Of a stretch of DNA of 38,415 bases, positions 33,792-38,282 are shown piece after piece. The translations under genes and the position numbers were made by a program. This DNA comes from a virus. The notes under the pieces are model-generated. The model saw only the letters and a program-made list of their open reading frames with translations. It did not search any database and had not been told where the DNA came from. Numbering within the stretch: position 1 is the stretch's first letter; every line of letters starts with the position of its first letter. The stretch lies in IMG/VR virus record IMGVR_UViG_3300027836_000020, positions 1 to 38,415 of that record; one strand, 5' to 3'.

Positions 33792-34121
33792 ATGAGTGTT
33801 TTCTTCAGAAAATTGAGAATCAATGAGTCTACTGGAACAGCAACTATCATTGCTACAGACAGACCAATCACCAGCAAAAGTACTACACTTGCTGGACTGA
33901 ACGTGGGAACACGTACACAAGGTAGTGTAAACTTTGGTGTCTTAAGCCTTATTGACCCTGAAACTAATCAGGTAATGAAAGCTAGTCATCCAACTATTCT
34001 GGCCTTGCAAAAGAAACTGAATGCTGGTGATGAAATGCCAGGATTCCAATTGAGTAGCAACCCTGTGGTTGATATTCAAACTGGTGAGCTAACAACCCTA
34101 ATGTGGATTGAAGCTATCTAA
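33792..34121 (+). CDS. First rightward gene, small conserved protein, paralogue A (109 aa)
   Basis: The protein (MSVFFRKLRINESTGTATII; NAGDEMPGFQLSSNPVVDIQ; ends LMWIEAI) is beta-rich and closely related over its full length to that at 35111-35440, with the VLSLIDPETNxVMKA and KKLNAGDEMPGF segments unchanged. The gene looks less AT-rich than its surroundings, which suggests high expression. Being the first gene right of the control region makes an early role likely. Function is unknown; a small beta-barrel nucleic-acid-binding protein is one possibility. Confidence 0.7.
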   Translation: MSVFFRKLRINESTGTATIIATDRPITSKSTTLAGLNVGTRTQGSVNFGVLSLIDPETNQVMKASHPTILALQKKLNAGDEMPGFQLSSNPVVDIQTGELTTLMWIEAI

Positions 34122-34131
34122 CATCAGTACA

Positions 34132-34160
34132 AGAGGGGAGTGTAACAACTCCTCTCTTTA
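34132..34160 (+). terminator. Hairpin after paralogue A (terminator or processing site)
   Basis: GAGGGGAGT pairs with ACTCCTCTC (9 bp with one G-U) around a 6-nt loop and is followed by TTTA. It starts 11 nt after the stop. The T run is short, so efficiency is uncertain. Confidence 0.55.
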
Positions 34161-34176
34161 ACTAACAGATGAGTGT

Positions 34177-34214
34177 GACTAGCTTAAGGCGTGACTCCTT
34201 GAAATAGTCTTTTT
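34177..34214 (+). terminator. Second hairpin with T run before the 80-aa gene
   Basis: GACTA/TAGTC closes an inner stem AAGG/CCTT, separated by a 4x4 internal loop (GCTT/GAAA), and is followed by five T. Stems are short, so the call is moderate. Together with the hairpin at 34132 it isolates paralogue A's transcript. Confidence 0.45.
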
Positions 34215-34242
34215 AAATATAAATCAAATATAATATAATAAG

Positions 34243-35110: not shown

Positions 35111-35440
35111 ATGTCAGTATTTTTTAGAAAATTGAGAGTAAATGATAGCACAGGTACTGCTACCATTATTGTAACATCTGCACCTATTGCAAGTAAAATA
35201 GGTACGTTAGCCGGCATCAGTGTTGGAACAAGAACCCAAAACAATATTACATTTGGTGTTCTTAGTCTGATAGATCCAGAGACTAACTTAGTAATGAAAG
35301 CCAATCATCCTACAATTGCACAACTTCAAAAAAAGTTGAACGCAGGAGATGAGATGCCAGGCTTTAAATTATCTAATAATAGAGTAGTTGACCTTGTAAC
35401 AGGGGAAGATACAACACTCTATTGGGTGGAAGCAATGTAG
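35111..35440 (+). CDS. Small conserved protein, paralogue B (109 aa)
   Basis: Same length and same start (MSVFFRKLRVNDSTGTATII) and end pattern (LYWVEAM) as the protein at 33792-34121, with the core FGVLSLIDPETN and LNAGDEMPGFKLS preserved. The two copies differ most at residues about 20-48. The stop is TAG. Keeping two diverged copies, each with the same upstream box, suggests that the product forms hetero-oligomers or that dosage matters. Function unknown. Confidence 0.7.
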   Translation: MSVFFRKLRVNDSTGTATIIVTSAPIASKIGTLAGISVGTRTQNNITFGVLSLIDPETNLVMKANHPTIAQLQKKLNAGDEMPGFKLSNNRVVDLVTGEDTTLYWVEAM

Positions 35441-35469: not shown

Positions 35470-35728
35470 TAACCCTTGTATTTACTAGCATATTTTATTT
35501 ATTTGTGTGTCTGTAGTTATGTGTGTGATCTTATATACCCAATAACATAACATAAACACAATGATAATTATACTTACTGCTATTATTATATATAGCTAAT
35601 ATTACTACTATTGTTACTCACACATAGTCTTCTTCTTCTCCTATACTATTGTCTTCTCTATCTATAGGATAAGAGCCATATTACCCGGAACAATAAATAA
35701 ATAAATCAATATTAATTAAACAGAAATT
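35470..35728 (+). other. Non-coding stretch with possible long-range stem
   Basis: No gene is supported here. TATGTGTG (35518-35525) can pair with CACACATA (35619-35626) across about 93 nt, enclosing a GCTAT/ATAGC hairpin (near 35579-35596). The sequence is low-complexity, so chance pairing is plausible. A pyrimidine-rich run (TCTTCTTCTTCTCC) follows near 35628, and the leader of the next gene holds TAAATAAATAAATC. Confidence 0.35.
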
Positions 35729-36058
35729 ATGAAATCAATTAACGTATTTGGAATGAAAACCATCTCAGTAAATGGTACAGCTATTAACACTTTTAAAGTT
35801 AGAGTTACAAACAATCAATTTAATCAAAGTGCATTAGCTTCTTTGTCTATGGTAGATAAAGATATTAGAGTAACACCACTCACTACATACAGAAATAATA
35901 ATTTTCAATCCTTAATTGAAATTACTTACACTGGTATGAATTGGGATAAAGACTTTCTTATCTTTAGAACAGTAGGTAAATCTTTAAAAGATATCCAACT
36001 TAATAAACTAAATGAAAGATACTCATGGACCAATGATCCAGAGTATATAGCACTTTAA
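35729..36058 (+). CDS. Small basic protein of unknown function (109 aa)
   Basis: A beta-rich N-terminal half (INVFGMKTISVNGTAINTFK; RVTNNQFNQSALASLSMVDK) and a C-terminal part with MNWDKDFLIFRTVGKSLKDI. Length equals that of the two 109-aa paralogues and the layout is similar, but residues do not clearly align, so kinship is doubtful. It is followed by a structured non-coding element. No function recognised. Confidence 0.6.
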   Translation: MKSINVFGMKTISVNGTAINTFKVRVTNNQFNQSALASLSMVDKDIRVTPLTTYRNNNFQSLIEITYTGMNWDKDFLIFRTVGKSLKDIQLNKLNERYSWTNDPEYIAL

Positions 36059-36062
36059 CAAT

Positions 36063-36148
36063 AAACTTGCTCAGGTATGCTGTTGTCCTATGAAATAATT
36101 AGGTTAACTGTGAAACCGTAAAGATGAAACAGTACTGAGCAAGTTTTT
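36063..36148 (+). ncRNA. Candidate structured RNA element 1, closed by a 14-bp stem
   Basis: AAACTTGCTCAG(G)TA at 36063-36077 pairs with TACTGAGCAAGTTT at 36133-36146 (14 bp, one bulged G), and a T run ends the element. Inside are GTT-gt-CCTA/TAGG-tt-AAC (36082-36108) and a weaker CTGT/ACAG helix (36108-36132), which would make a three-way-junction-like fold. It may be a decorated terminator or a leader RNA for the next gene; no known ribozyme or riboswitch core was recognised. Confidence 0.5.
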
Positions 36149-36167: not shown

Positions 36168-36365
36168 ATGAATGAAACTAAATTAACATACGCACAAATA
36201 GAACTGTTACAATACATATTAAACAAACATATGTTTGATACTTGTACAATGCATTCTAAAGAACATACAGCACTTAAATATAAGCTTATTACAATGAGAG
36301 CTGAAATAGAATATCCTCATTGTAGTATAAATCTTACACCTGAAGAAATAATCAAAACTTTATAA
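36168..36365 (+). CDS. Small helical protein (65 aa)
   Basis: MNETKLTYAQIELLQYILNK followed by CTMHSKEHTALKYKLITMRA and a short acidic end. All-helical, soluble, with a His/Cys-bearing middle that has no full metal motif. It lies between two structured non-coding elements. Function unknown. Confidence 0.6.
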   Translation: MNETKLTYAQIELLQYILNKHMFDTCTMHSKEHTALKYKLITMRAEIEYPHCSINLTPEEIIKTL

Positions 36366-36370
36366 TGGTT

Positions 36371-36545
36371 TATCTGTACCTATAACAAACAGAGATGTAT
36401 TTGCGTGTTTTACAGTTAATAGAAACATTGCAGTAGTGCCTGTAATAGTAGGCGGGTATAACCTGTTGTAATTTGCTGGCTTTGGTATCATGGACTTGCC
36501 TAAGTAGATAAAATCCATTAACCTGAACAAGTTGTTAAACTGTTC
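36371..36545 (+). ncRNA. Candidate structured RNA: run of five hairpins
   Basis: In order: TCTGT/ACAGA (36373-36393), TGC..GTTT/AAAC..GCA (36402-36432), GCCT/AGGC (36438-36453), GGT..ATGGA/TCCAT..ACC (36484-36523) and GAACA/TGTTC (36525-36545). No reading frame of note crosses the region. With the next element it fills a 332-nt gap that is very large for this compact genome. Individual stems are short, so covariation is needed. Confidence 0.4.
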
Positions 36546-36553
36546 TTATTTAT

Positions 36554-36660
36554 ACAATCAACTACCAACATACAATGACTGATTCCAAATGGATATTATT
36601 GTGGTGTAGTTTAGAAGAGCGTTAAAGGATATAACACACGCTATAGTTGATTGTTTTTTT
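36554..36660 (+). ncRNA. Candidate structured RNA element 2, closed by a perfect 11-bp stem with T7 tail
   Basis: ACAATCAACTA (36554-36564) pairs perfectly with TAGTTGATTGT (36644-36654), followed by seven T. Inside are ACAAT/ATTGT (36572-36602) and AGCGT/ACGCT (36618-36642), again giving a three-way junction. The layout copies that of element 1 although the sequences differ. Intrinsic termination at its end is likely; a sensing or RNA-protecting role is inference. Confidence 0.5.
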
Positions 36661-36678
36661 ACAAACAAATTATTAAAC

Positions 36679-36693
36679 CTCTTTAATAACAAA
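36679..36693 (+). repeat. Leader repeat before the 67-aa gene, repeated at 36999-37013
   Basis: CTCTTTAATAACAAA occurs exactly at both places, with similar sequence on its left (TATTAAAC versus TATTTAAT), and ends just before an ATG each time. It looks like a duplicated ribosome-binding leader. Confidence 0.5.
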
Positions 36694-36697
36694 TAAC

Positions 36698-36901
36698 ATG
36701 AACAAAATACTATTTCACTACGAAAGACAATATAATGATGACATCATTCTTATTGCTAACAATCATAAAGATCTTGAAGACTATTTAAAATCTAACTATG
36801 ATTGGTATAACATATCTGTAACTGAAGATTCAGTTTGTATTGTTGAACTACCAGGATATGCTAAAGACTATGTAGAACTGAAATGGGTAAAACATATTTA
36901 G
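36698..36901 (+). CDS. Small protein of unknown function (67 aa)
   Basis: MNKILFHYERQYNDDIILIA, then NHKDLEDYLKSNYDWYNISV and a beta-like end YVELKWVKHI. Compact alpha/beta look, Tyr-rich, no family known to me. It follows structured RNA element 2 and its leader is the first copy of the leader repeat. The stop is TAG. Confidence 0.6.
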   Translation: MNKILFHYERQYNDDIILIANNHKDLEDYLKSNYDWYNISVTEDSVCIVELPGYAKDYVELKWVKHI

Positions 36902-37016
36902 CATCATGTATCACGACAATCCTAAAAATCAAGGAATACAGAATATACTATGGCTTATTGTCATAGTATTTGTATTCTTAATCAAATTATTATTTAATCT
37001 CTTTAATAACAAACAA

Positions 37017-37217
37017 ATGAAATCAACAAAACTTATGTTAGCTGTAATAGCTACACTTCTCATTACATGGATTGTATTGGGAACAATAGGCTGGTGTATG
37101 TCAGACCTATCATTCAAAGAATGTTTAAAGCATGATGCAACGCTATTCATTATGTTAATATTAGGCTGGGTTCCAGCTATTTTTGTAGGCAGTGATATCC
37201 ATGATTTAAATAATTAA
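37017..37217 (+). CDS. Two-helix membrane protein, paralogue 1 (66 aa)
   Basis: The start is placed at ATG 37017 because from there it aligns end to end with the next gene's product (MKSTKLMLAVIATLLITW versus MKRKKVIIACIVTLLLTW) and because the leader repeat ends just before it. The frame is open upstream to ATG 36906, which would add 37 residues with another hydrophobic segment. Two transmembrane helices (about 6-27 and 43-59) share TLLxTW and MLIxGWxPA with the paralogue. Inner-membrane location is expected; superinfection exclusion is one possible job. Confidence 0.6.
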   Translation: MKSTKLMLAVIATLLITWIVLGTIGWCMSDLSFKECLKHDATLFIMLILGWVPAIFVGSDIHDLNN

Positions 37218-38143: not shown

Positions 38144-38232
38144 ACTATCACAGGTGACACACTAACAGTACCAGTAATATTATATATTATTATACTAGTA
38201 GTTAGGCCTTGTAAAACCATTGAATAACAGTG

Positions 38233-38257
38233 ACTCAGCATATTTTATATGTTGAGT
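38233..38257 (+). terminator. Hairpin before the last gene
   Basis: ACTCAGCATAT pairs with ATATGTTGAGT (11 bp, one G-U) with a 3-nt loop, followed by TGCTTTATT. The 139-nt gap 38144-38282 around it also holds a CTAAC/GTTAG closed AT-rich stem (38161-38205), making another structured interval. Confidence 0.5.
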
Positions 38258-38282
38258 TGCTTTATTCATTTAAAAATTAATC

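What the first reader, a model, noticed from the sequence alone, without database searches (positions are those of the whole stretch)
36366..36697. 332-nt gap filled with stems: candidate new structured RNA
In a compact phage genome this gap holds no gene, but it has five successive hairpins and then a three-way-junction-like element closed by a perfect 11-bp stem and T7. Such packing is more than expected for ordinary intergenic DNA. No tRNA, group I intron core or known ribozyme motif was recognised.
Basis: partly seen in the sequence, partly recalled or inferred. Interest (0 to 1): 0.68.

Follow-up and report, generated by a model that had tools for sequence, protein, structure and literature searches.

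The report
Exchangeable three-stem RNA in crAss-like phages
One third of a gene-free gap in an environmental phage genome encodes a small three-stem RNA that is nearly identical in twelve other, partly very distant phages, so it is a real and probably functional RNA, although nobody yet knows what it does.

Summary
The gap is real, but only its last third holds a demonstrable structure. The five hairpins of 36366-36548 are no more stable than shuffled sequence (z 0.03) and have no relatives among 190 loci by DNA or 210 by translation. The terminal three-way junction, 36554-36654 ("element B"), folds better than chance (z -2.8). It recurs in 12 other IMG/VR contigs (13 with the window), found by pattern scans and a covariance model. 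P1 is 9 conserved bp (11 in some members), P2 is CCA/UGG, P3 is GCRU/AYGC, and the junction strand UAGAAGAGC is invariant. Three base pairs carry compensatory changes. It has no Rfam match and no INPHARED match. Carriers fall into groups whose terminases share only about 26-32% identity, yet the window's B is 97/99 identical to one in a distant group. The window's 97%-terminase relative carries the other, short allele. B is therefore an exchanged module with edges at P1. It sits in a variable early-gene region whose non-coding DNA is enriched in long closing stems. Most likely it is a small ncRNA acting in trans; a cis mRNA-end or terminator role is the main rival. Transcription is untested.

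The parts
36554..36654 (+). Element B: three-way-junction RNA module, delimited by P1
   Evidence: R1 covariance-model match 36553-36660, 76.4 bits; 12 homologous contigs; z -2.79
36554..36564 (+). P1 5' strand ACAATCAACTA (inner 9 bp conserved)
   Evidence: compensatory C-G to U-A at two pairs in L162
36565..36604 (+). P2: invariant CCA/UGG base with a length-variable apical part (long insert here, shared with L185)
36605..36618 (+). Junction strand J2/3; with the first two bases of P3 (36619-36620) it holds the block UAGAAGAGC (36612-36620), invariant in all members
   Evidence: alignment A4, invariant columns
36619..36641 (+). P3 hairpin GCGU...ACGC (long-loop allele); GCAU...AUGC in other members, G-U intermediate in L188/L205
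   Evidence: pair 69-87 AU:7 GC:3 GU:1
36644..36654 (+). P1 3' strand TAGTTGATTGT
36654..36660 (+). run of seven T after P1; weakly terminator-like, not conserved
   Evidence: sequence; downstream sequences of the members
36366..36550 (+). first part of the gap ('five hairpins'): no excess structure, no relatives found; not part of the element

Best explanation
Element B (36554-36654) is a discrete ~65-105 nt structured non-coding RNA module, expressed with the early gene cluster of crAss-like phages and exchanged between phages as a unit. SHOWN: a conserved three-way junction (P1 closing stem, P2 CCA/UGG, P3 GCRU/AYGC) with an invariant single-stranded UAGAAGA next to P3; presence in 13 contigs of deeply different phages; long and short alleles that do not follow the terminase relationships; homology that mostly ends at P1. 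INFERRED: it is transcribed within the early transcript. P1 protects or defines the ends of a small RNA released by processing, helped by the U-run in some alleles. The invariant UAGAAGA strand plus the P3 loop form the binding surface for a protein or RNA partner in trans, while P2 is a spacer of free length. Allele swapping and the rotating set of other long-stem non-coding modules at this place fit a role in the contest with hosts or rival phages (decoy or regulator) better than housekeeping.
For: Family: a pattern on the junction and P3 gave 12 true contigs in viral contigs; three other pattern scans of B gave no further true ones. Model R1 scored the members at 73-99 bits (40.9 for the truncated L188 copy, 76.1 for its full copy in L205); the next match, 22.9 bits, lies in an ORF. 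Structure: 3 of 18 pairs with changes on both sides, covariation score 0.093 against 0.054 in shuffles (0/500 as high) and 0.000-0.073 for slid partners. Indels of 8 nt (P3) and 25-28 nt (P2) speak against a conserved reading frame. Exchange: 8 carriers (G003-G010) have terminases 31-32% identical to the window's, G002 26%, but G001 97%. B core: window/L185 97 of 99, L003/L131 65 of 67. The nearby MKSTKLML gene of the window is 62% identical to group II copies (G004, G006) but 53% to its close relative G001. B lies on the strand of neighbouring ORFs in all 13, with different immediate neighbours. Long closing stems (11 bp or more) in non-coding segments: 11 observed, shuffled mean 2.8, maximum 6 (homologous copies counted separately).
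Against: No transcript data. Covariation is thin: two of the three covarying pairs rest on one sequence (L162), and most pairs never vary. Control (b) at slide -2 reaches a score of 0.073. No partner is identified. No promoter was shown; in several carriers a GGGC..GCCC hairpin lies a few nt upstream, so B may simply be part of a long mRNA. Single-sequence folds of L003, L184 and L187 prefer another inner pairing, and L162, L200 and L205 have z only -0.45 to -1.5.
Confidence: 0.55

Rival explanations
1. B is a cis element of the polycistronic early mRNA: an mRNA 3'-end stabiliser, processing site or weak intrinsic terminator between unstable gene cassettes, with no trans function.
For: It always lies between or beside same-strand small ORFs; window, L131, L113 and L162 have all 11 P1 pairs followed by T-rich sequence; other long-stem modules lie in similar gaps.
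Against: The U-run is lost in most members. A plain terminator or stabiliser would not need an invariant single-stranded UAGAAGAGC or a conserved P2/P3 junction. Another hairpin (GGGCTCTTCTACGGGCCC type) already stands upstream near the gene end in 10 of 13.
Confidence: 0.27
2. B is a small mobile DNA element (MITE-like) whose P1 is its terminal inverted repeat; the RNA fold is incidental.
For: Near-identical copies in very distant phages with homology mostly ending at the inverted repeat.
Against: One strong match per record in 12 of 12 carrier records searched, upstream of the same gene neighbourhood in 11 of 13 and on the strand of neighbouring ORFs in 13 of 13; no target-site duplication seen by eye. 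Compensatory change in P3 and an invariant junction are RNA-type constraints. In L197/L203 exchange carries neighbouring sequence along (94% over ~290 nt), which is plain recombination.
Confidence: 0.08
3. B pairs with a specific RNA through UUAGAAG: the anticodon loop CUUCUAA of tRNA-Arg(UCU), or the loop of the upstream GGGCUCUUCUACGGGCCC hairpin.
For: UUAGAAG is the exact complement of the tRNA-Arg(UCU) loop (sequence; tRNA-like hits of pattern 24). The upstream hairpin is complementary in 10 of 13 carriers but its loop reads UUAAUU in two B-less relatives, L206 and L011.
Against: Seven-base matches to one of dozens of anticodon loops are cheap, and several such ideas were tried. The hairpin is missing in window, L113 and L162, where the junction is just as conserved; much of the complementarity lies in its stem.
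Confidence: 0.05
4. The conservation merely reflects recent recombination of a neutral spacer.
For: High identity overall; blocks of neighbouring DNA are shared too.
Against: Within B, the loop of P2 and the 5' half of the junction differ freely while P1, the P2 base, UAGAAGAGC and the P3 pairs stay fixed or change in pairs; most flanks do not align.
Confidence: 0.05

Closest known systems
Large ornate phage/prophage-associated RNAs (GOLLD, ROOL)
   Same: Structured non-coding RNA linked to mobile DNA and of unresolved function (seen only as listing and start of abstract, PMC12286853; the phage link is recalled).
   Different: Those are many hundred nt (recalled); B is 65-105 nt and has no Rfam match.
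Phage-encoded tRNA/tmRNA in the same regions
   Same: Small RNAs in the same early region of some carriers: tmRNA in L200, L202, L203, L184, L189.
   Different: B is not a tRNA or tmRNA by ARAGORN or Rfam.
Intrinsic (Rho-independent) terminators
   Same: In the window an inverted repeat followed by seven T.
   Different: The stem is A/T-rich, its loop is a conserved three-way junction of 44-79 nt, and the U-run is not conserved.
Phage RNA anti-CRISPRs (solitary CRISPR repeats; recalled)
   Same: Small stem-loop RNA in a variable phage region.
   Different: No CRISPR repeat comparison was made here; no resemblance is claimed.

Membership tests
Any Rfam 15 family | covariance-model score at or above gathering threshold | tested here: not met
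   0 matches in the window; best below-threshold hit over the gap 15.1 bits against 55 needed; none over B in 10 related stretches
tRNA / tmRNA | ARAGORN cloverleaf or tmRNA model | tested here: not met
   0 genes in the window
Intrinsic terminator | stem plus U-run kept across homologues | tested here: not met
   the outer P1 pair 2-101 is lost in 7 of 11 distinct sequences; U-run absent in most
Structured ncRNA family (generic) | homologues with compensatory substitutions in a common fold | tested here: met
   3 of 18 pairs changed on both sides, 93.9% of cells paired; modest depth, R-scape not available
Structured ncRNA family (generic) | a discrete transcript | not testable with these tools
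   no RNA data
Transposable element (MITE-like) | multiple copies, either orientation, target duplication | tested here: not met
   one strong match per record in 12 of 12 carrier records and same strand as neighbouring ORFs; target duplication looked for by eye only
Protein-coding gene | conserved reading frame | tested here: not met
   indels of 8 and 25-28 nt between members

The most novel reading that the evidence does not exclude
The early region of these crAss-like phages is an RNA cassette locus: a rotating, horizontally exchanged set of stem-closed small RNAs (B among them), each acting in trans on a host or rival-phage factor, so that phages swap RNA alleles much as they swap anti-defence genes.
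Probability: 0.22. Interest if true: 0.78.

Novelty: new variant of a known kind. Interest (0 to 1): 0.46.

Why it matters
It turns an eye-caught 'stem-rich gap' into a defined RNA family with a model, members and alleles. It also shows that crAss-like phages with only about 30% identical terminases share near-identical short RNA modules. If transcribed, it would be a small ncRNA family of crAss-like phages with no Rfam entry, and allele swapping points to a testable role in phage-host or phage-phage conflict.

Tried and rejected
(1) Whole 332-nt gap as one RNA: rejected by fold statistics and lack of relatives. (2) Upstream homologues through the downstream gene 36698: its relatives L004-L007 lie in unrelated contexts without the element. 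(3) An 18-nt exact match of the first part to portal-gene DNA of other phages: another reading frame, chance. (4) Open frames in the first part (plus-frame ...NGLSVPITNRDVFACFTVNRN..., minus-strand ORF): no start or no relatives, E 0.087 or worse. (5) Weak model hits L034 (22.9 bits), L162:1703, L183:7486 and others: L034 was read and lies in an ORF, the others scored under 21 bits; all treated as chance. (6) Three genome-contig hits L190-L192: no P1, chance. (7) Four extra pattern hits L193-L196 and the 39 new loci: no structure or no model match. (8) Four named phages (Lbo-JY46, phi17:2, Fpv20, csAssE-Sib): no model match at E 1. (9) Paper searches: nothing on such an RNA among the listings; I read listings and starts of abstracts only, no paper was opened.

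Full report
WHAT THE WINDOW IS. The 38,415-base window is an IMG/VR virus record. Its terminase, portal and major head protein match PHROG head-and-packaging families. Its terminase is most similar, at low identity (about 25%), to Flavobacterium, Bacteroides and other crAss-like or related phages ('crAss-like' is my reading of these relatives). Structural genes run on the minus strand up to about 33.5 kb; a cluster of small genes, here called early by analogy, runs on the plus strand from 33.8 kb to the end.

THE OBSERVATION. The gap 36366-36697 holds no convincing gene. Its fold is not unusual as a whole: z -0.39 and -0.43. The five-hairpin part, 36366-36548, has z 0.03, and sliding windows over it range from -0.87 to 0.90. 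The last part, 36553-36660, has z -2.79. The first part has no DNA relative among 190 loci (only 17-27-nt matches, of which the portal-gene ones were examined and lie in another frame) and no translated relative better than E 0.087 among 210 loci.

THE ELEMENT. In the closest relative with this region (L003, contig IMGVR_UViG_3300027707_000021), the gene homologous to 36168-36365 is followed by a shorter version of the same junction. Pattern scans of viral contigs gave 12 true contigs besides the window: L106 (= L003 = L022), L113, L131, L162, L163, L183, L184, L185, L186, L187, L188 and L189. The other stretches matched by the patterns lacked the structure or were not matched by the model: 0 matches at E 1 in 98 loci and 0 in 39. 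The genome-contig scan gave three hits without P1. A covariance model built from 11 sequences scored the members at 73-99 bits, and 40.9 for the truncated L188 copy, whose full copy in L205 scores 76.1. The next match, 22.9 bits, is inside an ORF.

ANATOMY (window coordinates). P1 36554-36564 with 36644-36654. P2 36565-36567 with 36602-36604, with a long apical insert here. J2/3 36605-36618. P3 36619-36622 with 36638-36641. J3/1 36642-36643. UAGAAGAGC (36612-36620) is invariant in all 13 rows of the alignment. Two alleles exist: the long P3 loop (window, L185, L162, L163, L188) and the short one (the rest). In P3 the third pair is A-U in 7, G-C in 3 and G-U in 1 of 11 distinct sequences. In P1 two C-G pairs are U-A in L162. 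The other pairs do not vary, except the two outermost P1 pairs, which are broken in 5 and 7 of 11. The covariation score is 0.093, shuffled mean 0.054 (0 of 500 as high); slid controls range from 0.000 to 0.073. This supports the fold but is thin, because two of the three covarying pairs rest on one sequence.

EXCHANGE BETWEEN PHAGES. Terminase identity to the window: G001 (L106) 97%; G003-G010 31-32%; G002 (L113) 26%; two short contigs (G011, G012) have no match. The four close relatives without B that I tested, G013-G016, have 96-97%. In those four the model found nothing, apart from a chance-level E 0.41 in G016. Yet the window's B core is 97 of 99 identical to that of L185 (G007), and L003's is 65 of 67 identical to that of L131 (G003), while most flanks do not align (exceptions are the 5' flanks of L003/L131 and L131/L184). 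The window and L003, near-identical in terminase, carry different alleles. The small membrane-protein gene MKSTKLML... follows B within about 280-1130 nt in 11 of the 13 carriers; it was not seen in the stretches read of L188 and L189. The window's copy is more like those of G004 and G006 (62%) than that of G001 (53%). Some exchanges took neighbouring DNA with them (L197/L203, 94% over about 290 nt). Plain recombination in a shared early region is therefore the simplest vehicle, with B as a conserved piece of it.

SURROUNDINGS. Non-coding segments of 17 such stretches (135 segments, 36.6 kb) contain 11 perfect inverted repeats of 11 bp or more enclosing a long loop; 15 dinucleotide shuffles gave a mean of 2.8, maximum 6; for 12 bp or more, 7 against 0.9, maximum 2 (homologous copies count separately). 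Examples are B itself, element A at 36063-36146, and modules in L198, L202 and L113. Several carriers encode a tmRNA in the same region, and L205 has a group I intron near a tmRNA-like sequence (my reading). In 10 of 13 carriers a hairpin of the type GGGCUCUUCUACGGGCCC stands upstream of B, complementary to UAGAAG; in two B-less relatives the loop reads UUAAUU. Three carriers without that hairpin keep the same junction, so I give this little weight.

INTERPRETATION. The conserved core, the free P2 length, the missing reading frame, the single orientation and the compensatory changes speak for an RNA-level function. The lack of a constant neighbour gene speaks against a riboswitch for one gene. 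The inconstant U-run speaks against a mere terminator. I favour a small trans-acting RNA cut from the early transcript (0.55), with a cis role in mRNA ends as the main rival (0.27). The step from conserved structure to a free RNA and a partner is inference.

NOVELTY. No Rfam family, nothing in 50,697 phage records by blastn (one search gave one chance match, 24 nt, E 4), no model match in four named phages, and nothing in the listings of seven paper searches. It is a previously uncatalogued small RNA family, as far as these collections go.

Noticed in passing
window 36063-36146: Element A: 84-nt non-coding module closed by a perfect 12-bp stem followed by a T-run, z -4.6. L015/L017 carry it with a compensatory change in the stem; a stronger fold outlier than the finding itself.
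   Followed up: partly
window 38144-38275: Element C: z -4.4; the block CTAACARYACCAGTA...ACTAG is kept, nearly unchanged, in 15 aligned, partly very distant relatives. Possibly a structured leader or a promoter.
   Followed up: partly
window 34121-34215: Non-coding stretch after the first early gene, z -4.35, 96-98% identical over 123 nt in L003, L010 and L026.
   Followed up: no
window 35661-35697: 30-37-nt block (TCTATAGGATAAGAGCCATATTACCCGG region) conserved in very distant relatives, upstream of the gene at 35729; promoter candidate.
   Followed up: no
L200:2271-2599, L202:11777-12202, L203:11361-11764, L184:2560-2963, L189:4089-4492: tmRNA genes with unusual tag peptides in B-carrying phages; a group I intron at L205:11186-11401.
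   Followed up: partly
L003:6930-7065, L200, L184, L186: Another stem-closed conserved module after B (CTCTCATAGTATGGAACATTCCTACTAACACATCTAG[AC]GGACTATGAGAG), shared between the two deep phage groups.
   Followed up: no
window 36681-36700 and 36999-37018; L163 several places: Repeated leader CTTTAATAACAAA just before start codons of small early genes.
   Followed up: no
window 33792-34121 and 35111-35440: Two paralogous 109-aa proteins (MSVFFRKLR...) of unknown family in the early region.
   Followed up: no
L199:13793-15817 (terminase): The closest named relative of the second B-carrying group is Leptolyngbya phage Lbo-JY46 (41% terminase identity), so some carriers might infect cyanobacteria.
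   Followed up: partly
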